From positions 51,857-115,856 of the forward strand of contig JAFUYT010000001.1 of NCBI GenBank assembly GCA_017470425.1: a stretch of DNA of 64,000 nucleotides, read 5' to 3'. Numbering within the stretch: position 1 is the first letter of the stretch; each line of letters opens with the position of its first letter. Below, piece by piece: positions 17,356-56,383 of the stretch. The notes under the pieces were generated by a model. That model ran no database searches. It was given only the letters and a program-made list of their open reading frames with translations, and was not told the DNA's origin. Both the position numbers and the translations under genes were made by a program. Source of the DNA: Bacteroidaceae bacterium (lineage in GTDB: Bacteria; Bacteroidota; Bacteroidia; Bacteroidales; Bacteroidaceae).

Positions 17356-18507
17356 TTACTGGTTCGGCATCTGACCGTCCAGAGCCTTGATGATCATCTC
17401 CAGCAGTTCGTTTGTGGGACGGGACAGCTTCATATTGCCCACCATCGTCTGCGGCTGACGCTTGCCCTCGCTGATTTCATTGAGGCGACGCTGCAGGATG
17501 GCTTTCATCTGTTGTCTGTACAGCAGTTCCGTCTGTGGCGTGAACGGTTTCGTCCAGCGTGCCAGCGTCATGTCGTCGGCATCGAGGTTGGGATTGGCCA
17601 GATACTGACGGATGTAGTTGAGATAGGAAGCGTAGTCCTTCTGTTTCTCGGAGAGCGTGATGAGCGTCTGCAGACGGTAGTGATCGGCGTTCTGGATGCC
17701 CAGCTCGTCGAGCAGCTGGCTGAAGCGGTCGTAGCTTTCCTGATCGAGGGTGGCAGTGCCGTCGGCCTCGTTGATGAGCTGACGCTGGAAGCCGCCGAGG
17801 ACGCTTTGGATCTTCATCCGCACGGGCATCTCGCCTGTGACAGCCTGCAAGCCCTCGGGATGCTTGGCAGTGTAGATGAAGCTCTTGGCGAAGGGGTTGG
17901 TGATGTTGCGGAAGAAGATCATGCGGAGCGTGCTGTCAGCTGCAAACGTCTCCTCCTTGCCTTCGAGGATGGCTTCGGCCACGTCGTTGGCTTCACCTGC
18001 CTTGTAGGAAGCGGTGAGCGTCTGCAGGTACTCCTGGAGGAACTGAGGGTCGCGGTCGCCGGCCTGCCAGCGTGCACGCAGGGGAGCAGACGTGTTGTCC
18101 TTGCTCTTCTCCTCAAGGACGCTGATGAAGTCGTCGGCCTCATGATAGCCCAGGAAACGACTGATCTCCTCGGCATCTGCCGTGAAGATGACGAAAGTGG
18201 GATAAGCCGTGATCTGCAGTTTCTTGGCCAGCGGAGCGCCGTATTCGCTCTCCATGTCTATCTTGATGCTGACGAACTTCGGGTTCATCGCGGCGCCCAC
18301 CTTCTCCTGAGGGAACACCTCGCGCGACATCTTCTTGCAGGGACCACACCACTGCGTGAAGCAGTCGAGGAAGATCATCTTGTTCTCTGCCTTCGCCTTG
18401 GCAGAAGCCTGTTCCAGCGTCGTTCCTTCAGGCTCGAAGACGACACCCTGTGCCATGATGACCGCCGAGGTCATCGCGCACATCATAAATGTAAAAAATC
18501 TCTTCAT
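17356..18507 (-). CDS. Exported thioredoxin-fold protein
   Basis: 383 residues: signal peptide (ending near VIMAQ), then a thioredoxin domain with the CGPC active site in CFTQWCGPCKKM near residue 52, followed by about 240 mostly helical residues of unknown role. It should act on disulfides in the periplasm. Its place between a surface lipoprotein gene and two secreted-protein genes suggests it supports folding or reduction of substrates of this operon. Confidence 0.85.
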   Translation of the reverse strand: MKRFFTFMMCAMTSAVIMAQGVVFEPEGTTLEQASAKAKAENKMIFLDCFTQWCGPCKKMSREVFPQEKVGAAMNPKFVSIKIDMESEYGAPLAKKLQITAYPTFVIFTADAEEISRFLGYHEADDFISVLEEKSKDNTSAPLRARWQAGDRDPQFLQEYLQTLTASYKAGEANDVAEAILEGKEETFAADSTLRMIFFRNITNPFAKSFIYTAKHPEGLQAVTGEMPVRMKIQSVLGGFQRQLINEADGTATLDQESYDRFSQLLDELGIQNADHYRLQTLITLSEKQKDYASYLNYIRQYLANPNLDADDMTLARWTKPFTPQTELLYRQQMKAILQRRLNEISEGKRQPQTMVGNMKLSRPTNELLEMIIKALDGQMPNQ

Positions 18508-18557: not shown

Positions 18558-20213
18558 TTACTGCATTGAGAACTTCCAGCCCATATCCTTCACGCGGCCG
18601 GGGATGACGTAGTCGCGGCAGACGCTCATGTCGATGTCGCCACTGGCCGTGTTGATACGGTACTGGTAGAGATGTCCCTGACGGGTCTGCTCGTTCCAGG
18701 TGGCGATGTGCAGGAGTTCGTCACAGCTCGGCATCATGCTTGCGCTGTAGATGCTGTTGTAGTACTTCTGCAGGCGCACGCAGGTGACGACCTCGCCCGC
18801 GGAGGGCGCCGTCCACACGGCCTCGGCTGGCAGACCGCTGTCGTAGGAAAAGTTGTAGAGCGTGCGTCCAGCACCATAGTAGATATAGCTGCCGATGTTG
18901 CTGGCGGCCATCGTGGTGGCGGCAGCCACCTGCGGACAGAGGGTAGTCATGTCATAGAGTCCGATGCCGATGCTCTCGTCATCGGGCGTCGATGTCGAGA
19001 AGTTGGCCACGGCGAGGCGGTAGGCGGTGCCGTCGGTCATCAATAGGTATTCATAGGGCTGTAGGCGTTGCTCACCCACGCCCCAGTCACCCATGAGGAG
19101 CGTCATGCCCGTGTGGTTGACGTCGAAGGCTGCAATCTCCATATCCTGCTCGACAAACGTCTCGAACCGGGCGCTCTCGAAGGCCGTATAGCGGAAGCAC
19201 TGGTGCGTCTGGTCATAGACCACGACGCCGTAGTTCAGCTGATTGGGTATCTCGGCGTTCCAGGCTGCCAGCTGCCCCACGCCCTCATCGAACTTCGCCA
19301 CGCCGAAGCGGCTCTCGCGCTCGCCAGTGGTGCTGTTGAAATAGGTGTTGGTATAGACCTTATTGTCGTTGATGAGCACCTCGGAACACTGACCAGAGAT
19401 ACCGCCGTTGCCGTGGTGGCTGTACCACGAAGGTGCCATGCGGGCGGGGGCGTTGTTGAAGAAGTTGTTGAAGGCCATCACCTGCTCAATACCCGTGTCG
19501 GTGACGCCCACGAGGGTGTAGTCCGTGCAGAGCCCCACATAGTTGTGCCCGCTGAGCGACATCGCTATGTCAAGGCATCGGATGGGTTTGCCCTGCAGGG
19601 GAGCGCCGTTGGTGAGCTCATAGAGGTTCGTGTAAGCACGGTCGGTGGTGAGGTTGTTCTTGGTCCATGAGTTGAGGATGAGAGCCAGGTCGCTGTAGCC
19701 CGGTCGGTCGGCGCGCTCGTAGAGCAGCATCCATCCGCCGTCGAAGGCCTCGCTGACGGCCACGCGCGTGCGGAAGAACTCGCGCAGGCCGTCCTCGGTG
19801 TTCGTCACAACAAGCTGCACGAAGTAGTTGCCACCCGTGCGGTTGACAGGTGCCACGAGGTGCCGCTCATATCCCAGCGTGTCGATGGACGTGCTGGTGC
19901 CCGCACCCGTCACAGAGCTGAAGAGGGTCCACTGATAGGTCAGGGGCACTGCGCTCTCGTCTGTTACGAGCTGCCCGTTGTAATAGACATTGGGTTCCAG
20001 GTCGATGACATCGAAGCGAGTAATGGCGTACTCCGGCAGGATGCCCGTGCCTGTCGTGTCGATGCTGACGGGCGTAATGTCGTGGTAGTCGTAGTTGCCC
20101 TTGTCGTCGTAGCAGGCGCAAAGCAAAAGGCAGAACAGCAGACCCACTCCCCTTCCCCATCCTGTCATGGAGGGGAGCAGACACCTTTGTAAATAGTTCT
20201 TTATCGCGCTCAT
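18558..20213 (-). CDS. PKD-like surface lipoprotein of a SusCD locus
   Basis: 551 residues. The signal peptide MSAIKNYLQ...LLFCLLLCAC ends in a lipobox with Cys near residue 34, followed by YDDKGNYDYHDITPVSID, the usual N-terminal start of PKD-like family lipoproteins (PF16407 as I recall) found beside SusC/SusD/DUF4843. A seven-bladed or similar beta repeat probably fills the rest. It is likely an outer-membrane lipoprotein that accompanies the SusCD transporter. Part of the signal peptide (PSMTGWGRGVG) is encoded by a palindromic element. Confidence 0.8.
   Translation of the reverse strand: MSAIKNYLQRCLLPSMTGWGRGVGLLFCLLLCACYDDKGNYDYHDITPVSIDTTGTGILPEYAITRFDVIDLEPNVYYNGQLVTDESAVPLTYQWTLFSSVTGAGTSTSIDTLGYERHLVAPVNRTGGNYFVQLVVTNTEDGLREFFRTRVAVSEAFDGGWMLLYERADRPGYSDLALILNSWTKNNLTTDRAYTNLYELTNGAPLQGKPIRCLDIAMSLSGHNYVGLCTDYTLVGVTDTGIEQVMAFNNFFNNAPARMAPSWYSHHGNGGISGQCSEVLINDNKVYTNTYFNSTTGERESRFGVAKFDEGVGQLAAWNAEIPNQLNYGVVVYDQTHQCFRYTAFESARFETFVEQDMEIAAFDVNHTGMTLLMGDWGVGEQRLQPYEYLLMTDGTAYRLAVANFSTSTPDDESIGIGLYDMTTLCPQVAAATTMAASNIGSYIYYGAGRTLYNFSYDSGLPAEAVWTAPSAGEVVTCVRLQKYYNSIYSASMMPSCDELLHIATWNEQTRQGHLYQYRINTASGDIDMSVCRDYVIPGRVKDMGWKFSMQ
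20141..20177. repeat. Palindromic element encoding the signal-peptide middle of the PKD-like lipoprotein
   Basis: CTCCCCTCCATGACAGG then a G-rich run ending in GTGGGTCTG (minus strand). It matches the elements in the SusD and DUF4843 signal peptides in layout and in the GTGGGTCT-like right end. Confidence 0.6.
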
Positions 20214-20244
20214 GATTATATCTGATAGGATTCTTGTTCTGTAA

Positions 20245-20271
20245 CCACTCCCTCACGGGTGAAGGGCGGTG
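20245..20271. repeat. Intergenic palindromic element before the PKD-like gene
   Basis: CACTCCCTCACGGGTGAAGGGCGGTG, an imperfect C-run/G-run palindrome just after the DUF4843 stop. It is weaker than the matching elements at 21156 and 22697, and its pairing with the 20141 element is poor. Confidence 0.45.
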
Positions 20272-20274
20272 CCT

Positions 20275-21105
20275 CTAAAATGTGACCTCATACCCGTACT
20301 CATCCGTGAGCGGCGTGTCGTGGGTGGCATTGTATTCGCTGAGAGCCTGTTGCATCTGCTGCTGCAGTTGCACGGCGTAGGAGGCGGAGATGGTGTTGGT
20401 CTCCTCGACGTAGTTAGGGAGGGAGCCCATCGAGGCCTGAATCTGGAAATCGACGAGCCCGAGATGCTCTATCATGAACTGGTACTTCACACGGCTATAG
20501 CTCCCGAAATAGCGGGCAATGGGATAGAAGATGAGCATATCGTTGCGCGTGGGCACGGCATCCCAGTTATCGGGCTTCGCCAGGTAGTTCTTCACGATAA
20601 GCGTGAAAAACTGATAGCCCTCGGTGCCGATGCTGAACGTCTCCGAGGGCACCACGCGCAGCTGCACCGTGCCATCGCGGTCGGTGAACAAGGAGGCGTC
20701 GGTCAGCTGCTGCGTACCCAGATGCAGGGCGTATGTGCCGCCGATGGCGCCGGCGGGGATGACATAGTCCTCTGTGCGCAGGGTGGGCGCCACAGCGTCA
20801 GCATCGTCGCCCGTGACCTCAAGGCGGAAGCTGCGGTCATAATCCACGGGCATCCCGGTGATCTGCGCATAAAACGGCACGCTACCTTCCTCGTAGGCGT
20901 AGGAGTAGTTGTAGGTCGCCGATTCATAGACCACGCCCGCTGCCGTGCCTACCCATATATTCAGCTGCGTCTCCGCAGGGTCGTAGGTCGGCACCTCTTT
21001 CTGGGAGCAGCTGGTTAATATTAAAGCCCCACCCCCGCCCCCTCCCGTCAGGGAGAAGAGGAAAGTTACTATTGCTAACTGTCTTCTGTATAATATTCTT
21101 TTCAT
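20275..21105 (-). CDS. DUF4843-type lipoprotein
   Basis: 276 residues from MKRILYRRQLAIVTF at 21105; a longer open frame runs upstream but its extra residues are repeat-encoded. The signal peptide has the unusual core SLTGGGGGGALILTSC, whose Cys is the lipidation site. SQKEVPTYDPAE then begins a fold typical of DUF4843 proteins beside SusC/SusD genes. In the B. thetaiotaomicron BT2261-2264 system, recalled here as a peptide importer, a similar lipoprotein belongs to the complex. Likely an accessory surface lipoprotein. Confidence 0.8.
   Translation of the reverse strand: MKRILYRRQLAIVTFLFSLTGGGGGGALILTSCSQKEVPTYDPAETQLNIWVGTAAGVVYESATYNYSYAYEEGSVPFYAQITGMPVDYDRSFRLEVTGDDADAVAPTLRTEDYVIPAGAIGGTYALHLGTQQLTDASLFTDRDGTVQLRVVPSETFSIGTEGYQFFTLIVKNYLAKPDNWDAVPTRNDMLIFYPIARYFGSYSRVKYQFMIEHLGLVDFQIQASMGSLPNYVEETNTISASYAVQLQQQMQQALSEYNATHDTPLTDEYGYEVTF
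21023..21054. repeat. Palindromic element in the DUF4843 signal-peptide coding region (3' arm)
   Basis: A 32-base arm. In the mRNA it can pair with the element at 21156-21187 across all 32 positions except two A-G mismatches, with three G-U pairs. It encodes SLTGGGGGGAL. Confidence 0.75.
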
Positions 21106-21155
21106 ATTTTCTTTTCTTAGCAGTTTCTTTGATGGTATCTCTTTCCCCACTCGCA

Positions 21156-21187
21156 TCCCTAACAGGAGGGGTCGGAGGTGGGTCTTT
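21156..21187. repeat. Palindromic element upstream of the DUF4843 gene (5' arm)
   Basis: An inverted relative of 21023-21054 that lies directly after the susD stop codon. The ATG at 21105 is at the exact centre of the 101-base loop between the arms. Confidence 0.75.
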
Positions 21188-21188
21188 C

Positions 21189-22661
21189 TCACTTATTCGC
21201 CTCCCTCTCGGCGGCCTCCGTCTCAGTGATGGGCAGCGGGAAGGTATAAAGTTTCTCTTCCACTGCATCGGCCTCGGGGAAGAGGAGGATGGTGGGACGG
21301 TTGAGGCGTTTGAAGAGGAAGAACAGCTGACCTTCGCCGAGGTACTCACGGCGGTACTCGCGGATGAGTTCCAGCAGGAAGTCATCGGGCTGGCGCGTCA
21401 GACGGGTCAGGTTGCGCGCCACGCGCAAGTCGTTCAGCGCACTCAGTGCCTCTTCGGCTTCGCCGTTGCGGTAGAGCACCTCACTGCGGATGAGATACAT
21501 CTCCGGCACACGGATGAGCGGCATCTTATTGTTGTAGAACACGCCGCCTGTGGCCTCGTCATATTTGCGCAGATAACGGTTGGCGGCGTTGCTGCCAGTG
21601 CCGTTCTTGAAGAGGAACGTGTAGCGGTAGTCGCGCGTAGCGCGGTCGAAATACTCGAGCAGGCGGTCACGCGTCACAGCAAAGCTGTTCGTGGTGCCCT
21701 CGCTGAAGTAGATGTCGGCGATGTCCGCCTGAAGCGTCAGGTTGTTAAGGGCGAACAGATGTTCGGTAGCCAGACTGCGGTCGGCACCCGTCTGCAACTG
21801 TGTGTTTACAGCCCACGGGAAGAGCTCCGACTTGATGACCTCGTCGGCCGCGGCAAGCGCCAGGTCATACTCGCACGCCCACATCAGCACGCGTGCCTGC
21901 AAGCCTCGGACAGCGTAGTAGTTGAGGTGGAGCTGCCGGTTGAGCAGATAGCCATTGTCGGTGGTCTCTGTGATCTCGCGCCCCGTCACGATGGGGTCTG
22001 CCTCTTTCAACAGCGCCTCCGCCTGCCGCAGATCCTCCTTCACAGATTCCAGCACCTGCCGCACCGTCAGCTGCGGGAACACGCGGTAGCTGAGAGCGGT
22101 AGAGTACGGGATGGCGGGCTGGTCGGGGTTCACGGCATAGCTCACACCGAAGCAGCGCAGGAGGTCGAAGTGCAGGAAGGCACGTAGCGCCAGCGCCTCA
22201 CCCTTGATGACCGCATAGTTGTCACGCGAAAAGAGCGACGGGTTCTCATCGATGTGTGCCAGCAGATTGTTCACATTGGCAATACCGCTGTAGTTCTGGT
22301 TCCAGATTCCGCGGATGTGGTTGGTGGCGATGGTACCGTCGTAGTCATAGGTGGCGACATCGCTCTCGCCATACTGCCCGGCACTGTAGTAGTCCCATTC
22401 GCGACCCAGCACTCCGATGAAGCCATAGGTGAGCTCCTTGGCGTAGGTCTGTGTGTTGACCATCGAGGAATAGACACCGGCGAGCGCCTCCTTGAAACCG
22501 TTCTCCGTCTCGAACAGCTCCGTGTCCTCGACCTGCGAACGGGGCTGTACGTCAAGCCAGGAGTTGCAGGCGCTTAGGAGTAAAGACCCACCCCCAACCC
22601 CTCCCGTCAGGACGGGGAGGAAAGTTACTATTGTTAATAGTTTCCTATATATTCTTTTCAT
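21189..22661 (-). CDS. susD: SusD-family outer-membrane lipoprotein
   Basis: 490 residues from MKRIYRKLLTIVTF at 22661. The signal peptide contains the repeat-encoded PVLTGGVGGGSLLLSAC, with the Cys as lipidation site, then NSWLDVQPRSQV, the standard SusD start. TPR-like helices (LAGVYSSM, ALALRAFLHFDLLRCFG) and the C-terminal IREYRREYLGEGQLFFLFKR segment are typical of SusD/RagB. It forms the lid over the SusC barrel and binds the substrate. It begins 77 bases after susC. The usual ligands are glycans or peptides; the neighbours here suggest peptides. Confidence 0.93.
   Translation of the reverse strand: MKRIYRKLLTIVTFLPVLTGGVGGGSLLLSACNSWLDVQPRSQVEDTELFETENGFKEALAGVYSSMVNTQTYAKELTYGFIGVLGREWDYYSAGQYGESDVATYDYDGTIATNHIRGIWNQNYSGIANVNNLLAHIDENPSLFSRDNYAVIKGEALALRAFLHFDLLRCFGVSYAVNPDQPAIPYSTALSYRVFPQLTVRQVLESVKEDLRQAEALLKEADPIVTGREITETTDNGYLLNRQLHLNYYAVRGLQARVLMWACEYDLALAAADEVIKSELFPWAVNTQLQTGADRSLATEHLFALNNLTLQADIADIYFSEGTTNSFAVTRDRLLEYFDRATRDYRYTFLFKNGTGSNAANRYLRKYDEATGGVFYNNKMPLIRVPEMYLIRSEVLYRNGEAEEALSALNDLRVARNLTRLTRQPDDFLLELIREYRREYLGEGQLFFLFKRLNRPTILLFPEADAVEEKLYTFPLPITETEAAEREANK
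22584..22620. repeat. Palindromic element encoding the SusD signal-peptide core
   Basis: On the minus strand it reads as a CCTCCCCGTCCTGACGGGAGG palindrome and then a G-rich run ending in GGGTGGGTCT. It encodes LPVLTGGVGGGS. The segment 22584-22605 is the 3' arm facing the copy at 22716-22737. Confidence 0.75.
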
Positions 22662-22696: not shown

Positions 22697-22737
22697 CCCC
22701 ACTCCCCTCCCTAATGGGAGGGGGCGGGGGTGGGTCT
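22697..22737. repeat. Palindromic element in the susC-susD gap (5' arm)
   Basis: CTCCCCTCCCTAATGGGAGGGG palindrome followed by a G-rich run ending in GGGTGGGTCT on the plus strand. It is inverted relative to the copy inside susD. The segment 22716-22737 matches the 22-base arm inside susD at 20 positions. Confidence 0.75.
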
Positions 22738-22738
22738 G

Positions 22739-25700
22739 CTATAATGTCGCCGTCACCGACAGCGAGAAGGTGCGGGCATAGGGGTAGCTCAGACCGCGCT
22801 CCGCCTTGATGGTAGCCAGATGGAAGACGTCGTTCATGTAAGCCGTCACGCGCAGGCGCTCCAGACCCGCGCGGCGCAGCCAGGCACAATACTTGAAGTC
22901 GTAGTAGAGCGAGAGGCTCGTGAGATCAAGCATGTTGTTGCGCTGCACGAAACGCGTCGAGGCGTAGGTCGTCGTGGGGTTCGAGGAGATGTGCTTGTAA
23001 AGGGCAATGTCGCCGGCGGCGTTCCAAGTGTCGCTGAAGACACGCCGATCGACGTTGTTCGCGATGTTCACGTTCTCCACGCGATCGACCAGTGTCTGGT
23101 TGTAGTAGTCACCACCCATCTGATAACTGAACAGCAGGCTCAGACCGATGCCCTTCACCTCACCGTTGAGACCGAGTGTGCCGTGCACCTTCGGCGTGGC
23201 ATCACCCGCGATGATGTAGTCATCGGTGGTATAGGTGTAGGTCGTCGTGCCGTTTTTCTTGCGGAACAGCTCGCGCCCCGTGGCTGGATCGATGCCAAGC
23301 GACTGCACCGCCCAGATGGCGCTCATGGACTGACCTTCCTCGTAGCGGATGATGGGCGAGGTGGTGTTCGATGCGTCCTGGTCGCGGTTGAAGCTGCTCA
23401 GCGCATCGCTGATCTTCGTAACCTTGTTCACATTATGGGCGATGCTGCCGGTGAGACTCATGTAGGACTGTCCCTTCTGGAAGAAGCGCCAGTTGGCAGT
23501 GGCCTCGACACCCCGGTTCTCCACGTTGCCCAGGTTCTCCATGTAGGAGGTGAAGCCCGTCGAGGTGGGGATCGTCATGGCAATGAGGGCATCGCGCGTC
23601 CGGCTGTTGTAGTAATCGAAGCGCAGGTTCAGGCGTTTCCATAGCCCCAGATCCAGACCGACCGTGAAGTCGCCCGTCTGCTGCCATTTCAGGTTCGGGT
23701 TGGGCATCCCCATCAGATAGGATCCCGAGATGTTATCGTAGATGACGCTGTCGTAGAACTTATAAGTGGCCTTGGCCTGATAGGGCGAGAAGTTCTGGTT
23801 GCCCGTGAGGCCGTAGGTGACGCGGATCTTGCACAGCGTCAGCCACGTGGCCGTCTCCATGAAATGTTCCTTGTGGAGATTCCAGCCGATACCGGCGCTC
23901 CAGAACGTACCCCAGCGGTTGTCGCTCCCGAACACCGAAGAGCCATTGAAGCGCAGGCTGGCGTCGAAGAGATAGCGCTCGTCGTAGCTGTAGTTGGCTG
24001 CGCCCGTGAAACCCAGCGAACGTGTCGTCGTCTCGGAGCCGCTCGGCGTGCCGCCCTCGGCATACTGCTTGGCAAAGGTGATGTAATCGACGTGATTGTT
24101 GAGGAAGCCCCAGGCTGTCATGCCCTCCGACGAACCGCTCGTGGATTGTAGCGAGTAGGCAGCATTGGCCAGCAGCAGATGCTTGTTCCAGGTATGTGAG
24201 TAGTTACCCGTGACGTCGATGTTGAGCGAGTTCGTCTCGCCATTGCTGATGTAGTAGCTGCCACGCTGGAAGTAGCGGTCGCCCGTCCATTCGTTGAAGC
24301 GCGTGTGATCACCGGGATAGAAGTCCTCGCGCTTGTCGTTCTGATGGATGTAGCCCAGTCGCGCCGTGAAGCGCAGGTCCTCCATCGGTCGGTATTCGAG
24401 GTAGAAATTCTCCACCACCTCGGTGTATTTCGAGAAGTTCTTCGTGCCGATGGAGGCGTTGTAGAGGGGATTGTAGTAGGTCAGGGTGCTGCCATTGGCG
24501 CCCGGCGAGGAGAATGTTCCCAGCACTTTCTGCACGTTACCGTTCTCGTCGGTCGAGGAGAAATAGGGATTCACGCCCACATAGTCTGAGAACGTGCCAT
24601 AGGGACTGTCATCGGCACGGTTACCTGTGACGCTGAGCGAGTTGCGGAACATCCATTGCTTGTAGCGGTAGCTGAGGTTGACATTGCCCTGAATGGTCGT
24701 ACGGTCCGATTTCTTCATCACGCCGCCCACGTTGTTGTACATCAGGTTCGCCGCGTAGCGCATCTCCTCGGTGCCGCCCTCGATGTAGGCGGTATGCTTG
24801 TGCCCCACGCCCGAGCGCAGAGGCTGCGAGAGCCAGTAGGTATCTACGCCGCGGGCGATGTCCGTCGCCGTGCGGTTGTACTGCTCGTCGAGCAATGCCT
24901 GGTAGTAGGGTGCCGTCGCCGTGTAGCGCCCAGCATTCTTCTCCACCTGGAGTTTCTCCTCGGCGTTGCAGAGATCGTAGCTCGTCAGGTCGGGCACCTC
25001 CACGTTCACATCGCCCGTGTAAGTGATGCGCAGCCGTCCCGCCTCCGGCAGGATGGTCTCCACGACGATGACACCGTTACTGGCCTTGGAGCCATAGATG
25101 GCCTTGGCCGCGCCGTCCTTCAGAATGGTCACGCTCTTGATGCGGTTGATGTCCAGATCAAAGATCTGCTGCTGAGTGGCCTCGAAGCCGTCCAGGATGA
25201 ACAGCGGGGCGTTCGGGTTGCCGCTGTACTCACCCTGCAGACCCGCGAACGACGCGTTGCCGCGGATGGTGATGTCGGCCATATAGTTTGGGTTGGAACC
25301 CATCACGCTGTTCATATCCACCACGAACGAGGGGTCCAGCGACTGTACGATCTTCAGGACGTTGCTGTTGCCCACCATCTTCAGGTCTTCCTGCGAGTAG
25401 GAGACGGCGGAGCCGGTGAACGTCGAGGACTTGTAATCGAACAGTCCCGTCACAACCACCTCTTCCATTTCGCCGCTCTCCGAGAGCACGATGACCTGAT
25501 TCGTGTAGTTCCGCTTGCCGTCGTAGCGCTTCGTCTGCGTCTTCATCCCCACGTAGGAGAAATCGACAGTGATTGCCAGCCCCTTGGGCACGGCCATTGT
25601 GAACTTACCGTCGGCATCAGCCACGGCGCCGGCCTTCGTCTCACGTACGCGAATGTTGGCACCCGGCAGCGTCTCGCCCTGTGTGTCCTTGACGACACCC

Positions 25701-25873
25701 GTCAGCAGAAGCTGGTCGGCAGCAATGGTCGCCGGACGCTGTGGCGTCACGCCCGTCATGGGAACCGACGAGGGACGCTCGCCTTCTGTCGTCACCTGAG
25801 CGGCCAGCGGAACGACTGCCACGTGCAACGCGACCGCCCAGGCGACACATTGATTTATATGGAATCTCAGCAT
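22739..25873 (-). CDS. susC: SusC/RagA-family TonB-dependent outer-membrane transporter
   Basis: 1044 residues from the ATG at 25873 (MLRFHINQ), 34 bases behind the promoter box; the ATG further up overlaps that box. A signal peptide ends near PLAAQ. A carboxypeptidase-like beta domain follows (GVVKDTQGETLPGANIRVRETKAG), then the plug with the SusC-type signature MEEVVVTGLFDY and VTILKDGAAKAIYGSKASNGVIVVET, and a 22-strand barrel ending ARTFSLSVTATL. It imports a substrate bound by SusD across the outer membrane using TonB. First gene of the seven-gene operon. The resemblance of the whole set to BT2261-2264 suggests oligopeptides as substrate. Confidence 0.95.
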   Translation of the reverse strand: MLRFHINQCVAWAVALHVAVVPLAAQVTTEGERPSSVPMTGVTPQRPATIAADQLLLTGVVKDTQGETLPGANIRVRETKAGAVADADGKFTMAVPKGLAITVDFSYVGMKTQTKRYDGKRNYTNQVIVLSESGEMEEVVVTGLFDYKSSTFTGSAVSYSQEDLKMVGNSNVLKIVQSLDPSFVVDMNSVMGSNPNYMADITIRGNASFAGLQGEYSGNPNAPLFILDGFEATQQQIFDLDINRIKSVTILKDGAAKAIYGSKASNGVIVVETILPEAGRLRITYTGDVNVEVPDLTSYDLCNAEEKLQVEKNAGRYTATAPYYQALLDEQYNRTATDIARGVDTYWLSQPLRSGVGHKHTAYIEGGTEEMRYAANLMYNNVGGVMKKSDRTTIQGNVNLSYRYKQWMFRNSLSVTGNRADDSPYGTFSDYVGVNPYFSSTDENGNVQKVLGTFSSPGANGSTLTYYNPLYNASIGTKNFSKYTEVVENFYLEYRPMEDLRFTARLGYIHQNDKREDFYPGDHTRFNEWTGDRYFQRGSYYISNGETNSLNIDVTGNYSHTWNKHLLLANAAYSLQSTSGSSEGMTAWGFLNNHVDYITFAKQYAEGGTPSGSETTTRSLGFTGAANYSYDERYLFDASLRFNGSSVFGSDNRWGTFWSAGIGWNLHKEHFMETATWLTLCKIRVTYGLTGNQNFSPYQAKATYKFYDSVIYDNISGSYLMGMPNPNLKWQQTGDFTVGLDLGLWKRLNLRFDYYNSRTRDALIAMTIPTSTGFTSYMENLGNVENRGVEATANWRFFQKGQSYMSLTGSIAHNVNKVTKISDALSSFNRDQDASNTTSPIIRYEEGQSMSAIWAVQSLGIDPATGRELFRKKNGTTTYTYTTDDYIIAGDATPKVHGTLGLNGEVKGIGLSLLFSYQMGGDYYNQTLVDRVENVNIANNVDRRVFSDTWNAAGDIALYKHISSNPTTTYASTRFVQRNNMLDLTSLSLYYDFKYCAWLRRAGLERLRVTAYMNDVFHLATIKAERGLSYPYARTFSLSVTATL

Positions 25874-25906
25874 GTTAGCCTTGTGTTTGTCTGTTCGTTT
25901 CGGCGG

Positions 25907-25937
25907 CAAAGGTAGCGCAAAACGGACAATTCACCAA
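25907..25937 (-). promoter_or_regulatory. Promoter of the susC operon
   Basis: On the minus strand a TTG (-33 element) is followed by a 20-base spacer and then TACCTTTG at 25907-25914. This is a full match to the Bacteroidetes housekeeping promoter, 34 bases before the susC ATG. Confidence 0.8.
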
Positions 25938-33123: not shown

Positions 33124-33236
33124 ACGCCTCAGTCACTCGCCACCCATGAAAACATATGCTGGCTTATGTTACGCGGTCTGCAACTCACGTCCAAAGGCCT
33201 GGAGAGAGAGGTCTTTAGGACTGTTTTCTGCTGCAA

Positions 33237-33364
33237 ATATAGATAAATGTAGCGAAATATAAGCCAGTCCGATAAAGAATTTAAGTTTTCTTTAGAGGAA
33301 ATATAGATAAATGTAGCGAAATATAAGCCAGTCCGATAAAGAATTTAAGTTTTCTTTAGAGGAA
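33237..33364. repeat. Tandem duplication, 64-bp unit x2
   Basis: 33237-33300 and 33301-33364 are identical across 64 bases (starting ATATAGATAAATG). AT-rich and non-coding. Confidence 0.95.
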
Positions 33365-33573
33365 AGATAACAAAAAACAATTGGTTTCAGCAAGTAAAAC
33401 AAGAAATAATTGACTTGTGCGTTTCACTTTTCACCCTATATACTGGAAAGAGCCCTTCAACGATTCCTTCTATGTTATTTTTCCCTGTCTTTTTCTCTCA
33501 TTCCCTCACACGACTTGATTATCAATGGAATCTGGTGAGGGAAAGGTGAGGGAAAGGGCTGAATGGTGAGGGA

Positions 33574-33677
33574 ACCTATCGAGCTTATGCCCTTCACCTC
33601 GCGAGCTTCCACCCCTCACCTCGCGAGCTTATGCCTCACACCTCGCGAGCTTCCACCCTTTACCTCGTGAGCTTCGA
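33574..33677. repeat. 22-bp tandem array, about five units
   Basis: Units start at 33574, 33596, 33618, 33640 and 33662 with core ACCTCGCGAGCTT. Alternate units continue with ATGCC or CCACC. There are no spacers, so it is not a CRISPR array. Confidence 0.9.
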
Positions 33678-33940
33678 GGTAGTTCCATGCGTGGAACATT
33701 CATGCAGCAAGCGTGTTTCATCATCACTGCACGCTGCCATACTCCTCTCGTCAGTCATCACCTTGCCGCTCACCTCTCGTCTTATACCCCATTTCTCTCA
33801 CGCCCTCACGCGTTCCTTCACCATAATCCGCTGTTAATCAATCCGTGTGAGGGAGTGAGGGAAATTTCAACCAAAATAACAAATCTGTTACCGCCCAAAT
33901 CTTTTGGGCTAAAATATGTGGTGCACCCCAAAAATCTCTC

Positions 33941-37422: not shown

Positions 37423-37468
37423 AGGCCCACCCCCGGCCCCTCCCCATAGGAGGGGAGAAGGGAGGGAG
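37423..37468. repeat. Intergenic GC-rich palindromic element after parA
   Basis: GGCCCACCCCCGGCCCCTCCCC facing AGGAGGGGAGAAGGGAGG; it resembles the elements of the susC operon. The following 37488-37523 is an AT-rich TTTAAACTTT-type repeat also seen in other gaps. Confidence 0.55.
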
Positions 37469-48547: not shown

Positions 48548-49721
48548 TTCGCATCCACTCCGTCGCGGTCGTTCCCATGCTTTGCTTGAACGCAGCATTG
48601 AACGTGCTGTAACTGCGGAAGCCGCTCTCGAGGGCCAGCTGCTTGACCGATGTGGGCTGGCTGACGGTGGCGGCCTCATGATAGAGGCGGACGAAGTGCT
48701 GGATGCGAAGGTCGTTGATGTAGGCGTTGTATGTCGTGCCCTGAGTAGAGAAATACTGGCTGAGGTAGGAGCGGTTGATGCCGATCTCGGCGGCCAGCTG
48801 CGTGGCGGTAATGTCGTGTTGCAGATAGAGCTGCCCGTCCTCGCAGTGCTGCTTCAGCTTGGCTTCGATGATCTTGGACAAGCTAAGCGGCAGAGCCGAA
48901 CGGTCGCGAATGGGAGGCGGTAGGGCGCCCGCCTCACCCTCCGTGTTGTCCGGCTCTATTGCCTCGGTGCCGTCTGTCTCGATGGCGAACGAGTCGTCCT
49001 CGGCAGCCGTCAGCGTCTCCACCTGCTGGGTGCCCAGGTCGCTCAGCGTCTCCACCCTCCACAGCAGATAGCCGACGAGTATCACCTCGTTTACCTGCAG
49101 TACATACTGCGAGGTCATGCTGTTGATGGCAAAAGAGTAGATACCCATCACCAGCAGCATGACGGCCAGCACAGCAAAACTCTGCCATACCTCCTTGTGC
49201 TCCAGGTCGGCATAGTTGTCGCGCAGCCAGCGGCCATATTGTCTTAAAGCACGTACCATATAGACGAACAGGCCAATGCCCAGCAGCAGGATATAGACAC
49301 GCAGCTTCGGCATGAGGGCATCGTCATGGCTTGCGGCGACCCACGCCATGCCCGCAACGAGCGGCGCTGACACCACCGCCACCGGCCACAGCGGGCGACG
49401 ACGGTCTTGCAGCATGGCCATTGGTACGACGGCGGCCAGCGGCAAGAGAATCATGCAGTCGAGCAATGCCCCTACACGAAAGTCCCGCATCATCGCCTCG
49501 GTAGTGCTACGGAACAGCATCGGCATATACCAGAGGTGACTCAAGGCTATGGCTGCGAAAAACGCCGCTGTCCAGCGGCGCAGACGCACCGGCGGCGTAA
49601 CGTCGGGCGCAATGCCGTTGGCGCGGCGCAACAGCAGATAGCAACTGGCCATCATGGCGATAGCCGTCACCATCGCGTAAAGAATGATATAGAGGGTATC
49701 TTCCCGAATCTGGTCGTACAT
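48534..49721 (-). CDS. Membrane-anchored AraC-family regulator A
   Basis: 395 residues. About six hydrophobic segments fill residues 10-230 (LYIILYAMVTAIAMMASCYLL first), then a linker, and a C-terminal AraC HTH (TATQLAAEIGINRSYLSQYFSTQGTTYNAYINDLRIQHFVRLYHE...SGFRSYSTFNAAFKQSMG). It could sense a signal at the membrane and control the adjacent lipoprotein gene. It starts 26 bases after the upstream ATPase gene; its paralogue is at 52821. Confidence 0.88.
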   Translation of the reverse strand: MYDQIREDTLYIILYAMVTAIAMMASCYLLLRRANGIAPDVTPPVRLRRWTAAFFAAIALSHLWYMPMLFRSTTEAMMRDFRVGALLDCMILLPLAAVVPMAMLQDRRRPLWPVAVVSAPLVAGMAWVAASHDDALMPKLRVYILLLGIGLFVYMVRALRQYGRWLRDNYADLEHKEVWQSFAVLAVMLLVMGIYSFAINSMTSQYVLQVNEVILVGYLLWRVETLSDLGTQQVETLTAAEDDSFAIETDGTEAIEPDNTEGEAGALPPPIRDRSALPLSLSKIIEAKLKQHCEDGQLYLQHDITATQLAAEIGINRSYLSQYFSTQGTTYNAYINDLRIQHFVRLYHEAATVSQPTSVKQLALESGFRSYSTFNAAFKQSMGTTATEWMRTSEL

Positions 49722-49747
49722 AATTGAATGGTGTCAGATTACCATGC

Positions 49748-51292
49748 CTATGCTATCCTCCAGTCGTCAATCAGCTTCGTCTCCGTCGAGAAGTTGATGC
49801 CGATCTTGAACAGCTGGCGTGGGTCGGAGGCGAAAGGCAGGGCATAGCCCTTGTCTTCTATCTGCTGCAGGGCGGCCGCGGCGGTCTGGTTGATCTTGAG
49901 CTCAAGGATATAGATGTAGTCTGGCGTCTGTATCAGTACGTCTATGCGGCCATTGCTGGTGCACCGCTCCACATTGACATAGAAGCCCAGGAGGCGGAAG
50001 AATACATAGAGCGTGTTCTGGAAATACTTCTCCGTGTTGCCCACAACCTGGTAGTCGCCATCGGCAAAGAAGTCCTGCAGACGGTGCATGAAGCCCTCTG
50101 CGTCGCCCATTTCCACATCTTTGACAAAACGAGCGATGGAGAACGTACTTTTTCTATCTGTCTTGGGCGTATAGAACGGCAACAGATATTTGATGAAACC
50201 CTGTTCTACTTCGCGGTTGGGGAAGCCCAGAGTGTAGGCATCAAAACGCTCGTCGTAGCTCTTCAGCGTCAGGTAGCCACTTTGGTAGAGCAGCGGCAGC
50301 GGATTCTCATCCATGATGTCGATGCTGTTGAGCGTATCGGTCGAAAGCTCCTCGGTGGTCATATTCTCCAGAGGGTAGCACGTCTTCTTCAGCTGATGGA
50401 CCAGGAAAGAGGGGGTGCCCGTTTCAAACCAGTAGTCATTGAACACTTGGCTGCTCAGCGTATTCAGCACACTGAACGGATTGTACATTCCTTCCTTGGC
50501 GTACTTACTGAAGTGGTAGCCGTCGAAGTCACGGCGCAGCCGCTCGTAGCACTCCTCTTTGGTCATGTTGTTTGCTTCAGCCAACGCCGCAATGCTCTCA
50601 TCGAAGTAGGTGTGCAGTTCTTGCTCCGTCATGCCACACACAGCAGAATAGCGATGGTCCAGCGAGAGATCTATGAGGTTGTTCAGGTCGCTGAACACGC
50701 TCACCTTTCCAAACTTTGTCACGCCCGTCAGGAATGCGAAGCGGATTTTGGCATCCAGGGTCTTCAGGACTGAATAGAAAGCTTTCAGCTTGTTCCGATA
50801 GGCTGTCTGCAAGGGCTCGTTGCCAATAGCTTGCAGCAGTGGTTTGTCATACTCGTCCACCAGAATGACCACCCGCTTTCCGGTCTGCTCGTAGGCCTTT
50901 TCAATCACGTGGATGAAGCGTTCCTCCAGCTCACGGTCCTTGAATTCGTCGCCGTACTTCTTCTCCCAGCCTTCTAGATGACGGTTCAGCTCTGCAGCGA
51001 GCGAGCTTTCATCCTTATATTCGCGGCTGTTCAGGTCTAAGTGCAGGATAGGGTGCTTCACCCATTCCGTCTCCAAACGCTCTACGGCCAACCCCCGAAA
51101 CAATTCCCGCTCCCCTTGGAAGAATGCCTCCAGCGTGCTTAGCAGCAACGACTTGCCGAAACGCCTTGGGCGGGAGAGAAAATAGTATTTCCCCTCGTCC
51201 ACCATTTTCCACATCAGCGCCGTCTTGTCAACATAGACATAACCGTCGCGCCGTATCTCGCCAAAGTTCTGTATGCCGATAGGATATTTCAT
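49748..51292 (-). CDS. AAA-ATPase-like / PD-(D/E)XK nuclease-like protein A
   Basis: 514 residues from MKYPIGIQNFGEIRRDGYVYVDKT. An ATPase domain with the Walker A variant SRPRRFGKSLLLST near 40 and Walker B RVVILVDEYDKPLL near 145 (PF09820 class). A C-terminal PDDEXK_9-type region has GRIDVLIQTPDYIYILELKIN (Asp, Glu and Lys of the nuclease core). This fused pair is common in Bacteroidales, often in many copies, with unknown function. Most similar in its C-terminal half to copies B and C. Confidence 0.9.
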   Translation of the reverse strand: MKYPIGIQNFGEIRRDGYVYVDKTALMWKMVDEGKYYFLSRPRRFGKSLLLSTLEAFFQGERELFRGLAVERLETEWVKHPILHLDLNSREYKDESSLAAELNRHLEGWEKKYGDEFKDRELEERFIHVIEKAYEQTGKRVVILVDEYDKPLLQAIGNEPLQTAYRNKLKAFYSVLKTLDAKIRFAFLTGVTKFGKVSVFSDLNNLIDLSLDHRYSAVCGMTEQELHTYFDESIAALAEANNMTKEECYERLRRDFDGYHFSKYAKEGMYNPFSVLNTLSSQVFNDYWFETGTPSFLVHQLKKTCYPLENMTTEELSTDTLNSIDIMDENPLPLLYQSGYLTLKSYDERFDAYTLGFPNREVEQGFIKYLLPFYTPKTDRKSTFSIARFVKDVEMGDAEGFMHRLQDFFADGDYQVVGNTEKYFQNTLYVFFRLLGFYVNVERCTSNGRIDVLIQTPDYIYILELKINQTAAAALQQIEDKGYALPFASDPRQLFKIGINFSTETKLIDDWRIA

Positions 51293-51322
51293 GAAAGCAA
51301 CAAAATTTCTATTAAGACGCGG

Positions 51323-51330
51323 CAAAAATA
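51323..51330 (-). promoter_or_regulatory. -7 box for ATPase A
   Basis: TATTTTTG on the minus strand, 31 bases before the ATG. The same box precedes copies B and C. Confidence 0.5.
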
Positions 51331-51358
51331 CAACTTGTTTTTTATTTGGACGAGAAAA

Positions 51359-51396
51359 ACGCTGCTTTTTCACCATTCTTAGGAAAAAAGCAGCGT
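51359..51396 (-). terminator. Terminator of the hydrolase B transcript
   Basis: ACGCTGCTTTTT (51359-51370) pairs with AAAAAGCAGCGT (51385-51396), and T residues follow on the minus strand. Confidence 0.75.
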
Positions 51397-51456
51397 CTTT
51401 ATATTAAGAATCCCCAAAGCGGCAAGGCCGGGCGGTGCAGGTTCTTCTTATAATTA

Positions 51457-51547
51457 TTATTGGTTCGCCCTATAAGCCGCGATACGCTTGGCTACGTTAT
51501 CCTTGATATTGCTGTAGTAAAACGTGTAGTCTTCATTATGGAAACTT
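51457..51547 (-). pseudogene. Remnant of a DUF3089 gene 3' end
   Basis: In one minus-strand frame it reads HNEDYTFYYSNIKDNVAKRIAAYRANQ then stop, matching the last residues of the intact DUF3089 protein (ASDYSYYYLNIKDNVAKRIATYKANQ). The frame is offset from the hydrolase, whose stop is at 51548. About 270 codons of DUF3089 are missing between this remnant and the DUF3089-like tail of the hydrolase. Confidence 0.8.
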
Positions 51548-52669
51548 TTAGAACGTGTCGAACTCCTTGGTGATTTCCGGAATCTGATACCAACAGGACT
51601 TCTTGGAATAGTCGGGTGCGCCGCTCATACTGCTGTTTTCTGACTTAAACATCTTTTTAACGGCTTCGTCTCGCAGGTTCTTGAAGCGGATGGTCTGAGG
51701 GCTGTCGTTCAATATGACATTATAGGAGTGAGGTACGCCAGGTTCCACGAACGACTCTACTTGTACGCCAGCCAGCTTCAGTTGCTCCACGAAAGCCAAG
51801 TCCTCATGAACGAAGAGGTCGAGGGTGCCGACGATGAGGAAGGTTGCGGGGAAGCCTTTGAGCTGCTCGGGTGTGGCTACTGCCGGGGAGTAATAAATAA
51901 ATTCATCGGCAGGGATTTCCTGTTCATGCTTCAAAAGGGCCCAGCCAGCGACATTCTCGTCTCTATGCCATACGAACTCGCCAGTCATGTCGTCCGGGTG
52001 GAGGTCGTCAGGTCCGCCGGTGCGATAGTCGAGCATAGGATAAATGAGCACCGCACCCTTTACAGGCACATCGCCCTTGTCCTTGTTCCACAGTGCCATA
52101 CGGGTGGTCAGTCCGCCGCCAGCGCTTTCGCCCATAATAACGATATTGTCGCCATCGACATGCAGTTCATCGCCATGCTCGTGGACATAGCGCAGACCCG
52201 CGTATGCCTCATCAAGCTCTATGTGATAAGTGTAAGACGGATCGGTCGTCAGCGTGTATTCTGGAGAGAAGACCGTGGCGTTGAGCCTGTTGGCCATCTC
52301 GCGGAAGTCGTTGCCATACATCGTAGCGTTGCCTGTAGCGTAGCCGCCTCCATGACAATAATACACGACGGGTGTCTTCTCGTCCTGGCCGACGCCATCG
52401 GGACGGTAGAAATAGATTGTAAGTTTCTGTCCTGACTTGGGGCTATCGATGGTGAAATTCTCGCCCTGGTCCTGAACGATGCTCGCAAACTTTGACTCTA
52501 AATCCGGGTCAAGGAGGGCTTCCTTGTACTCATCTGCTATGAGGTTGTAGCTTTTGGGAAGTGTCGGAGTTGGGGCAGGGGCGTCGTCTTTGCTGCTGCA
52601 TGAAGTGAGTACCGTTGTTGTGCCGTAAATCAGGATAGCGGCAAGCATCCATTTTCTCAGATGTCTCAT
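51548..52669 (-). CDS. Alpha/beta-hydrolase lipoprotein with a chimeric C-terminal tail
   Basis: 373 residues from MRHLRKWMLAAILIYG at 52669. Lipobox near TSC. HSL-type signatures: YYCHGGGYATGN (oxyanion hole HGGG) and GESAGGGL nucleophile elbow; a late GVPHSYN may supply the His. It is probably an acyl or carbohydrate esterase on the cell surface. The last 21 residues (DYSKKSCWYQIPEITKEFDTF) copy residues near the N terminus of the DUF3089 lipoprotein, with DNA almost identical over about 40 bases, so the tail arose by recombination or is what remains of a hydrolase-DUF3089 fusion. Confidence 0.85.
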   Translation of the reverse strand: MRHLRKWMLAAILIYGTTTVLTSCSSKDDAPAPTPTLPKSYNLIADEYKEALLDPDLESKFASIVQDQGENFTIDSPKSGQKLTIYFYRPDGVGQDEKTPVVYYCHGGGYATGNATMYGNDFREMANRLNATVFSPEYTLTTDPSYTYHIELDEAYAGLRYVHEHGDELHVDGDNIVIMGESAGGGLTTRMALWNKDKGDVPVKGAVLIYPMLDYRTGGPDDLHPDDMTGEFVWHRDENVAGWALLKHEQEIPADEFIYYSPAVATPEQLKGFPATFLIVGTLDLFVHEDLAFVEQLKLAGVQVESFVEPGVPHSYNVILNDSPQTIRFKNLRDEAVKKMFKSENSSMSGAPDYSKKSCWYQIPEITKEFDTF

Positions 52670-52711
52670 GTTAAGAATGTTTTTGGGGTTAAACATAAAT
52701 GAAATTGTCGG

Positions 52712-52719
52712 CAAAGGTA
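52712..52719 (-). promoter_or_regulatory. -7 box for hydrolase B lipoprotein gene
   Basis: TACCTTTG on the minus strand, 42 bases before the ATG. Confidence 0.65.
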
Positions 52720-52773
52720 AGCAATACCCCTAAAACAACTGAACCTCTGAGCGCCTGAAGGGTCAGGTTTTGA

Positions 52774-52806
52774 TAATTCAGGAACGATTTTAACGATTCA
52801 GTAAGC
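52774..52806 (-). promoter_or_regulatory. Putative AraC-type direct-repeat operator B
   Basis: On the minus strand TACTGAATCGTTAAAA and TCCTGAATTATCAAAA, 20 bases apart, ending 55 bases from the -7 box. Together with site A they give a half-site like YNCWGAATYNTNAAAA. Confidence 0.5.
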
Positions 52807-52820
52807 CTGATTGCAGCAGA

Positions 52821-53924: not shown

Positions 53925-53950
53925 CATTGAATGGTGTCAGATTTCCATGC

Positions 53951-55495: not shown

Positions 55496-55525
55496 GAAAG
55501 CTACAATATTGCTGGTTTGACGGTG

Positions 55526-55533
55526 CAAAAATA
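55526..55533 (-). promoter_or_regulatory. -7 box for ATPase B
   Basis: TATTTTTG on the minus strand, 31 bases before the ATG. Confidence 0.5.
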
Positions 55534-55591
55534 CAACTTGTTTTTTATTTGGACGAAAAAATCACAGCTTTTTCACGATTCCCAGGAAAAC

Positions 55592-55655
55592 AAAGAATTC
55601 CTCTCCGGCCCGAAGGACATGGAGAACCTCAAAGCTGAGTTCTCCATCCCCCTCA
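55592..55655 (+). pseudogene. Fragment 1 of the nucleotidyltransferase 3' region
   Basis: 64 bases closely match 46973-47036 inside the intact nucleotidyltransferase gene (encoding EFLSxPKxMENLKAEF), then the match stops and a copy of that gene's downstream hairpin follows. It abuts the leader of ATPase B directly after CCCAGGAAAACAAAG. Confidence 0.85.
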
Positions 55656-55661
55656 CACATT

Positions 55662-55697
55662 ACAGGCCGTCAAGATTCTCCTGGCGGCCTGTTTTAT
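55662..55697. terminator. Duplicated hairpin terminator
   Basis: ACAGGCCG (55662-55669) pairs with CGGCCTGT (55685-55692), followed by TTTTA. It resembles the terminator at 47219-47247. Confidence 0.7.
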
Positions 55698-55746
55698 TCA
55701 GATGTTACAGGCGAGCCTGTAACGTATGTTTATGCTATGTCCTTGC

Positions 55747-56160: not shown

Positions 56161-56249
56161 GTCGTAAATATCATTTAATTGTTGTGCAATATTGCCTCAC
56201 ACCATAAGGAAAGAACTGCGACTTACATCCTTTCAAAAAGAAAAGCGCA

Positions 56250-56383
56250 GACTTCCGTCATACGCTGCTCAGGCCTTCCACAGCCTCCATCATACTATAC
56301 GGAAGTCCACGCGATGCGTGAACTCCAACGTATGATGGATCAGGATGCTCTTTGGCTGGGTCGGTGTGGAAGTTTGAGCAGCG
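56250..56383 (-). ncRNA. Candidate structured leader RNA upstream of the small lipoprotein
   Basis: Nested complementary arms: 56263-56271 with 56375-56383 (9 bp), 56275-56282 with 56365-56372 (8 bp), 56286-56295 with 56330-56339 (10 bp) and 56308-56312 with 56316-56320. In addition 56250-56258 is complementary to 56299-56307, which would make an alternative fold or pseudoknot. It lies between a -7 box and the lipoprotein start. Coding potential is poor. No known RNA family was recognised. Confidence 0.45.

What the first reader, a model, noticed from the sequence alone, without database searches (positions are those of the whole stretch)
20141..22620. Palindromic elements encode the signal-peptide core of three surface lipoproteins
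SusD (LPVLTGGVGGGSLLLSAC), the DUF4843 protein (SLTGGGGGGALILTSC) and the PKD-like protein (PSMTGWGRGVGLL) all have Gly-rich stretches in the hydrophobic core just before the lipobox. In each case the codons are a palindromic element ending in GGGTGGGTCT or close to it. Repeat DNA has become a working export signal in three genes of one operon.
Basis: partly seen in the sequence, partly recalled or inferred. Interest (0 to 1): 0.75.

Follow-up and report, generated by a model that had tools for sequence, protein, structure and literature searches.

The report
Swappable repeat-built lipoprotein signal peptides
In a Prevotella-type bacterium, short repeated DNA elements supply part of the export signal of several surface-type lipoproteins, and relatives appear to have exchanged these leader pieces like cassettes while keeping the proteins behind them.

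Summary
The observation largely holds. The SusD, DUF4843 and PKD-like genes each encode a lipoprotein-type signal peptide (SP) containing a ~38-bp G-rich repeat; the PKD copy is diverged. The repeat has 87 matches in this genome (reversed control: 2) and is not SP-specific: of 93 profile hits, 39 lie inside genes, 24 are intergenic, 22 N-terminal.

(1) Copies often form inverted pairs, tails outward; some pairs are absent as a unit from relatives. At gene junctions a pair brackets the start codon, supplying a new start and N-terminus (radC-like gene). (2) In 22 orthologous operons of the genus, SPs behave as interchangeable modules built from unrelated repeats. Operons 94-98% identical differ completely between upstream stop codon and lipobox Cys. 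One cassette is 99% identical in two genomes with ~70% identical flanks. The best SP match lies in another gene family for 37 of 64 SPs, against 0 of 64 mature starts.

Best reading: composite palindromic elements act as gene-start/SP cassettes exchanged between lipoprotein genes. Function, mobiliser and exchange mechanism are untested. One repeat-derived SP was predicted before (Delihas 2007), so this is a new variant.

The parts
21189..22661 (-). SusD-like lipoprotein gene
   Evidence: ORF; Pfam SusD-like_3 and SusD_RagB
22566..22661 (-). SusD signal peptide, ATG to lipobox Cys (32 codons), module A
   Evidence: sequence; module assignment by eye
22582..22619 (-). G-rich element copy inside the SusD SP (LPVLTGGVGGGS)
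   Evidence: nhmmer score 37.5
22701..22737 (+). inverted partner copy between the SusC stop and the SusD ATG (5'UTR arm)
   Evidence: (I5), 16, 42: 82 nt from the SP copy; RNA helix
20275..21105 (-). DUF4843 lipoprotein gene
   Evidence: ORF; Pfam PF16132
21007..21105 (-). DUF4843 signal peptide (33 codons), module A
   Evidence: sequence
21025..21060 (-). G-rich element copy inside the DUF4843 SP (LFSLTGGGGGGA)
   Evidence: nhmmer score 26.2
21156..21187 (+). inverted partner copy between the SusD stop and the DUF4843 ATG
   Evidence: I15; 96 nt from the SP copy
18558..20213 (-). PKD-like lipoprotein gene
   Evidence: ORF; Pfam PKD_2
20112..20213 (-). PKD-like signal peptide (34 codons from the first Met; a second in-frame Met at codon 16), module B
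   Evidence: sequence
20140..20177 (-). diverged element copy in the PKD SP (LLPSMTGWGRGVGL)
   Evidence: read from the sequence; hairpin; not hit by the profile
20246..20275 (+). degenerate inverted partner upstream of the PKD gene
   Evidence: read from the sequence; no profile hit there
22739..25909 (-). SusC-like TonB-dependent receptor upstream of SusD; no element seen in its SP here
   Evidence: ORF; Pfam
37423..37456 (-). further intergenic copy in the window

Best explanation
The repeats are outward-facing arms of small composite elements (units of about 115-175 bp at three junction sites where a relative lacks them: C-rich arm, core, G-rich arm), similar in architecture to REP doublets or MITEs. 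When such a unit lies at a gene junction, its core carries a start codon and its right arm is read in frame, so it supplies the 5'UTR, a new start and an N-terminal peptide. In non-exported proteins this is a tolerated leader; in lipoprotein genes, cores encoding a basic/hydrophobic stretch plus a Gly-rich or Arg-Gly/Leu arm make up most of the signal peptide. Once SPs were repeat-built, the tract from the upstream stop codon to the lipobox Cys became a swappable cassette, replaced by short-tract recombination with cassettes of other lipoprotein genes and other species (some built from unrelated AT-rich repeats), while selection kept the mature proteins. SHOWN: repeat in the SPs, pairing polarity, empty and filled sites, sharp-edged differences, sharing of modules between non-orthologous genes, a cassette far more alike than its flanks. 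INFERRED: that the SPs export, that the cassette moved horizontally, the recombination route, the mobiliser, and selection for SP function.
For: 87 matches in the genome, reversed control 2; pattern found in 16 of 25 genomes of the genus (own included) and 0 of 16 of other families. All 22 N-terminal copies have the G-rich strand as coding strand, internal copies 19 G / 20 C, copies at gene 3' ends 8 of 8 C. An inverted partner on the core side within 400 bp for 50 of 93 copies, on the tail side for 1. Empty/filled sites: radC-like junction empty in G057, ~115 bp unit in G145, ~158 bp in G149, with new starts and N-termini; ~175 bp intergenic unit in L120 against L257. 22 orthologous operons: best SP match is another gene family for 37 of 64 SPs, 0 of 64 for mature starts; 25 of 64 when also scoring >=0.5, the best of 192 shuffled queries being 0.28. 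Operon pieces of three genome pairs match at 97.3, 94.0-96.3 and 98.5%, yet alignment is lost from about the upstream stop codon to within two codons of the lipobox Cys at the four SPs printed base by base; the third pair shows gaps at PKD and DUF4843. DUF4843 leader of G057 and G145: 235 nt with 2 mismatches, against 70% identity of the mature start and 72% upstream. At least 11, 12 and 11 module changes on the SusD tree.
Against: No transposase was tied to the element; PF01797 (Y1_Tnp) has no match in this 72%-complete MAG. No target-site duplication was recognised. 43 of 93 copies have no core-side partner, and 21 of 64 SPs belong to none of my repeat modules, which were assigned by eye. 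No element hit lies in the blind 400 kb and lipoproteins there look ordinary. The number of module changes has no shuffled control. All operon comparisons rest on MAGs. Replacement could partly be rapid rewriting of a weakly constrained region, not transfer.
Confidence: 0.6

Rival explanations
1. Only tolerated selfish insertions: REP/RPE-like palindromes land anywhere, survive where the encoded peptide is harmless (linkers, N-termini, SPs), and the different modules in orthologues are independent insertions, not exchanged cassettes.
For: The same family sits inside genes in both orientations (39 of 93), with in-frame insertions against relatives; five of six frames are open in 23 of 30 seed copies, four in 6, six in 1. 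Compared with 4000 random placements, copies are rarer inside genes (39 of 93 against 2890 of 4000) and commoner between genes and at N-termini, as selection against damage would give.
Against: Does not explain modules shared with core and 5'UTR between non-orthologous genes, a leader with 2 mismatches in 235 nt between genomes with ~70% flanks, or modules made of unrelated AT-rich repeats.
Confidence: 0.17
2. Horizontal regulatory transfer in the ordinary sense: intergenic regions are switched by homologous recombination between strains; SP codons are carried along and repeats are incidental passengers.
For: Sharp replacement of intergenic regions between close operons; replacement of one intergenic region by another is described in bacteria under this name (PMC5890482, passages read).
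Against: Replacements run through coding sequence to the lipobox Cys in each of the four cases printed; the closest cassette is often in another gene family; flanks of the shared cassette are only ~70% identical, poor substrate for ordinary homologous exchange.
Confidence: 0.15
3. The complementarity between 5'UTR and SP codons is a selected RNA switch that hides or exposes the start region, and the SP peptide is a by-product.
For: SusD leader folds at -77.4 kcal/mol, z -5.7, ATG in the loop; mean base pairs spanning the ATG 31-39 in modules A, B, C, E against 17-20 in shuffles, 12 against 15 in the rest; unrelated sequences share the architecture. In module E own arms pair better (-71.2 against -59.5, n 4, 2 of 4).
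Against: In the larger modules arms do not co-vary: own 5'UTR pairs with own SP no better than others of the module (A -72.1/-72.3, B -66.9/-68.9, C -45.4/-45.5). Only 10 of 43 module leaders exceed all 30 shuffles. Outward pairs also occur away from starts (13 of 39 internal copies).
Confidence: 0.05
4. Assembly artefact: short-read MAGs join wrong cassettes at repeats.
For: The genomes are fragmented MAGs; this MAG holds duplicated contig stretches.
Against: Leaders are in frame and complete with start and lipobox, cassettes are distinct sequences, and the pattern recurs in three genome pairs and 22 loci.
Confidence: 0.03

Closest known systems
Rickettsia palindromic elements (RPE; Ogata et al. 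2000, named in PMC2229807 and PMC3733652, passages read; original papers not read)
   Same: Palindromic repeats kept in frame inside protein-coding genes
   Different: RPEs are 105-146 bp with stem-loops per PMC2229807; here ~38-bp arms, often in outward pairs that bring a start codon, in a Prevotella-type genus, and part of signal peptides that are swapped
Enterobacterial repeat units RU-1/2/3 (Delihas 2007, PMC2759123, passages read)
   Same: Small mobile repeats read in frame; [quoted passage not shown]
   Different: One such case in the passages read; here several genes and many genomes, lipoprotein SPs, and cassette exchange with sharp edges
REP elements / GTAG and CGTC repeats with RAYT transposases (PMC3733652, passages and abstract read)
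   Same: Short palindromes, singles and inverted pairs, some inside genes
   Different: No GTAG/CGTC tag noticed in the consensus; no Y1_Tnp gene found in this MAG; here copies bracket start codons
Horizontal regulatory transfer / intergenic switching (Oren et al. 2014, cited in PMC5890482, passages read; original not read)
   Same: Non-homologous intergenic regions replaced upstream of conserved genes in close relatives
   Different: The replaced tract here includes the start codon and the SP, ends near the lipobox Cys, and resembles cassettes of other gene families

Membership tests
Rickettsia-type in-frame palindromic element | repeat family read in frame within otherwise conserved genes | tested here: met
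   Internal in-frame copies against element-free relatives (L091 vs L215, L277 vs L276); 39 of 93 copies inside called genes
Rickettsia-type in-frame palindromic element | sequence relationship to RPE families | not tested
   No RPE sequence was compared
REP/RAYT system | IS200-like Y1 transposase (RAYT) in the genome | tested here: not met
   PF01797: 0 matches in G000, 5 of 14 control genomes ring; MAG is 72% complete, so not final
REP/RAYT system | short palindrome occurring singly and as inverted pairs | tested here: met
   50 of 93 with core-side inverted partner; but the focal single hairpins are no better than shuffles
MITE | terminal inverted repeats around a core, inserted as a unit | tested here: met
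   Units with inverted ends absent from a relative: radC-like junction in G145 and G149, L120 intergenic, L142 internal
MITE | target-site duplication | tested here: inconclusive
   No clear duplication seen by eye in the alignments printed
MITE | ends shared with an autonomous element | not tested
   No autonomous copy was searched for beyond PF01797
Lipoprotein signal peptide (SPII type) | basic n-region, hydrophobic region, lipobox before Cys | tested here: met
Lipoprotein signal peptide (SPII type) | lipidation and surface display | not testable with these tools
   needs experiment
Horizontal regulatory transfer | conserved gene with non-homologous upstream region in close relatives | tested here: met

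The most novel reading that the evidence does not exclude
A mobile 'gene-start cassette': a composite palindromic element that carries 5'UTR, start codon and signal peptide, moves horizontally and between non-orthologous lipoprotein genes, and so re-equips surface proteins with new translation starts and export leaders without touching the mature protein. The 235-nt DUF4843 leader shared with 2 mismatches by two genomes whose flanks are ~70% identical is the clearest candidate event.
Probability: 0.4. Interest if true: 0.82.

Novelty: new variant of a known kind. Interest (0 to 1): 0.68.

Why it matters
Signal peptides are usually thought to drift with their genes. If leaders are exchanged as short cassettes built from repeats, then translation start, leader and export efficiency of nutrient-uptake lipoproteins can be re-wired in one step and between species. 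It also gives a concrete route by which 'selfish' repeats become protein parts, and it warns annotators that start sites and SP-based orthology in these genomes can mislead. The claim is directly testable with reporters and long reads.

Tried and rejected
(1) RAYT as mobiliser: no PF01797 match in G000. (2) Is module A a dispersed SP cassette in this genome? Its 5' flank (up to 3 mismatches) occurs only twice, both in this operon. (3) Are all lipoproteins like this? No: 0 of 29 lipoprotein-like genes with enough upstream sequence in 400 kb chosen blind to the repeat have 5'UTR-SP complementarity z>4, against 1 of 217 other genes (18 of 264 called genes near edges dropped); those stretches avoid the sites already fetched, so they under-sample repeat-rich places, and none of the 93 element hits lies in them. 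(4) Lipoprotein-specific targeting: 4 lipoprotein genes with the element inside the SP among the 20 genes that hold the 22 N-terminal copies (hand count), against 29 of 246 genes in the blind sample: not clearly enriched. (5) RNA-switch selection: no co-variation in modules A, B, C. (6) A control lipoprotein (gene in L254) matched in only 4 of 41 genomes, so it gave no SP control. (7) A first scan for element copies before a lipobox gave 11 rows of 68 here, 3 of them on the C-rich strand and not SP-like to my eye, and 7 of 84 in other genomes, all on the G-rich strand. (8) Module classes were mis-assigned by a regex and redone from explicit hand-made lists. (9) Searches failed on script errors and were rerun. 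(10) Rows dropped: six non-Bacteroidales loci (L125, L131, L141, L170, L171, L177); five duplicate contexts. (11) The L277/L062 alignment was uninformative. (12) Literature: in the listed top rows (at most 20 per search, of up to 2,074 papers) I saw no paper on such SP cassettes in Prevotella; the library lacks most subscription papers.
Full report
WHAT IS THERE. The window lies in an unnamed 2.4-Mb MAG, 72% complete. The minus strand holds SusC-like, SusD-like, DUF4843 and PKD-like genes, an operon by arrangement. The last three begin with lipoprotein-type SPs that contain a repeat with consensus about CTCCCCTCCCTNACGGGAGGGGTYGGGGGTGGGTCTTT (read). The pattern is far above chance in window and genome. 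The G-rich strand reads LPSLTGGVGGGSL, SPPSREGxGVGL or PLPxGRGRGWVF by frame; the C-rich strand KDPPPTPPVREG or RPTPxPSREGGE; in 30 seed copies five of six frames are open in 23, four in 6, six in 1. A canonical G-quadruplex motif (GGGAGGGGTTGGGGGTGGG) lies in the SusD and DUF4843 copies, not in PKD, and in all 10 module-A SPs; whether it forms is untested.

A GENOME-WIDE FAMILY. In the window, 55 stretches taken around pattern hits and 20 stretches of 20 kb chosen without regard to the repeat, a profile made from 30 seed copies gives 98 hits at E<=0.1, 93 after removing identical contexts, none of them in the 400 blind kb. With a simple hexamer gene caller: 39 internal, 24 intergenic, 22 N-terminal, 8 at gene 3' ends; 4000 random placements give 72, 9, 12 and 7%. 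N-terminal hosts include lipoproteins and SPI proteins but also genes that read like pyrF, folD, truB and argG (my reading, not tested by family search). N-terminal copies all use the G-rich strand (22 of 22); internal ones are mixed (19/20); 3'-end ones all the C-rich strand (8 of 8). Inverted partners lie on the core side in 50 of 93 (14 of the 22 N-terminal ones) and on the tail side in 1 of 93. So the orientation at starts and stops is what outward-facing pairs across gene junctions would give.

INSERTION AS A UNIT. Comparing the loci held gave 10 rows in 7 locus pairs; their alignments show: a radC-like junction empty in G057 (upstream stop, one base, ATG), filled with ~115 bp in G145 and ~158 bp in G149, the proteins starting MNIKELPIDERPR, MKQQNNKLSEVTTLPLEGERGGGLTIKELPIDERPR and MEKIHHTTTRQQLPSITGGVGGGSLTLKQLPIDERPR. 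A ~175-bp pair lies between genes in L120 but not in L257. In-frame internal insertions occur in L142/L242 (a uvrA-like gene by my reading, where the relative carries a different short palindrome), L277/L276 and L091/L215. L277/L062 was uninformative. No target-site duplication was recognised.

SIGNAL PEPTIDES AS MODULES. 22 of 139 genomes of the genus, own included, hold the SusD orthologue at E<=1e-150. Their 64 SPs (22 SusD, 21 DUF4843, 21 PKD) fall by eye into A (YRKLLAIVTFLPSLTGGVGGGSLLTSC, 10), B (YHLQKYLLPSLxGRGRGVGLL, 12), E (TPSLTGRAGGES, 4), C (VKSNSYFSLFTLSLFTL, AT-rich TTTTTCACTTTTCAC repeats, 17) and other (21). Many A, B, E and C SPs have a reverse-complementary arm in the 5'UTR; exceptions include the three L102 genes, and pairing is weak in the PKD genes of L234 and L238. 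Module C's arms are dispersed in several genomes of the ten searched (one match in the own genome) and form SPs of other lipoproteins (L286, L294, L297, L300, L301, L307 by eye). By SP DNA the best match is another gene family for 37 of 64; for equally long or 300-nt mature starts it is 0 of 64. Mean similarity of orthologous SPs (0.154) equals that of non-orthologous SPs (0.149), while mature starts give 0.496 and 0.078. Short SPs can match by chance, so I asked for scores >=0.5: 25 of 64 still prefer another family, the best of 192 shuffled queries being 0.28; 12 of those 25 matches are in the same genome.

SHARP REPLACEMENT. Operon pieces of G057/G129 match at 97.3%, G145/G149 at 94.0-96.3%, G083/G079 at 98.5%. 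In the first two pairs, four operon SPs were printed: alignment is lost at or within a few bases of the upstream stop codon and returns within two codons of the lipobox Cys, while one SP per pair stays alike (SusD in G057/G129 and in G083/G079, PKD in G145/G149). Longer stretches, of which ~12-20 kb align, give 20 gaps in the three pairs (4, 7, 9; aligned parts 94.1, 94.0 and 96.4% identical): 7 at 5' ends in this operon (PKD and DUF4843 in two pairs, SusD and DUF4843 in one, plus the 5' end of the following thioredoxin-like gene in G057/G129), others at radC, at an ABC-ATPase-like N-terminus, between or within genes, or as gene-content differences. The DUF4843 leader of G057 and G145 shares a 235-nt tract with 2 mismatches that starts 35 nt before the SusD stop and ends at the Cys codon, with 70% mature and 72% upstream identity. 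Within single genomes SusD/DUF4843 of L099 (95%) and SusD/PKD of L239 (92%) share a cassette with unrelated mature parts. On a SusD tree at least 11, 12 and 11 module changes are needed (no shuffled control).

WHAT SPEAKS AGAINST MORE. Complementarity of 5'UTR and SP is strong but in modules A, B and C the arms do not co-vary (E, n 4, leans the other way), so a selected RNA switch is not needed. In blind stretches lipoproteins look ordinary. For a lipoprotein that I read as Omp85-like (no family search), 41 of 41 genomes match, in G014 only by a distant relative; of the 30 loci fetched, 3 carry the palindromic element in the SP, one more looks like module C, and the rest look ordinary or have other insertions; 2 had no lipobox by my pattern and one was parsed wrongly. 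So this is a frequent event at some loci, not a rule.

HOW IT MOST LIKELY WORKS. See best explanation. The recombination route is open: arms repeated in the genome, a conserved SusD end on the left and the serine-cysteine codons on the right would allow homology-facilitated or microhomology exchange (inference).

AGAINST WHAT IS KNOWN. In-frame palindromes (RPE), repeats inside genes (REP), one predicted repeat-derived SP (RU-2 in YPO1552) and switching of intergenic regions (HRT) are each described (passages read). The combination, with SP cassettes exchanged among lipoprotein genes, did not appear in the listed rows of my searches, which cover open-access papers only.

Noticed in passing
L270 (G145) and L272 (G149), SusC gene upstream of SusD: The TonB-dependent receptor itself has an element-like stretch in its SPI signal peptide (FLPSPTGGVGSGSSALFAQ), unlike the SusC of the window.
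   Followed up: no
window 17356-18507 and its relatives in L262 / L267: The thioredoxin-like gene after the PKD gene has an ordinary SP here but LPSLLREGSGVSLAQ in G057 and G129, whose 5' tract also fails to align between the two.
   Followed up: partly
G000 contigs C23/C24, C26/C34, C12/C25, C22/C31: The MAG seems to hold duplicated contig stretches (identical element contexts or identical proteins on two contigs), so genome match counts are slightly inflated.
   Followed up: partly
L106 (G066), SusD-like and DUF4843-like genes: A different palindrome (CCCCCCATTTCGGGGGGAG..) occurs, twice in tandem in one SP, in a distantly related operon.
   Followed up: no
window 61456-61618: Tandem 24-bp repeats (TTCACTGTTGTTCATGCTAAG type).
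   Followed up: no
window 33235-33864: A perfect 64-bp direct duplication, 22-bp ACCTCGCGAGCTT repeats and a 52-nt inverted repeat lie together.
   Followed up: no
window 49036-58049: Long repeated blocks at 4203 and ~2545 bp spacing, perhaps paralogous genes.
   Followed up: no
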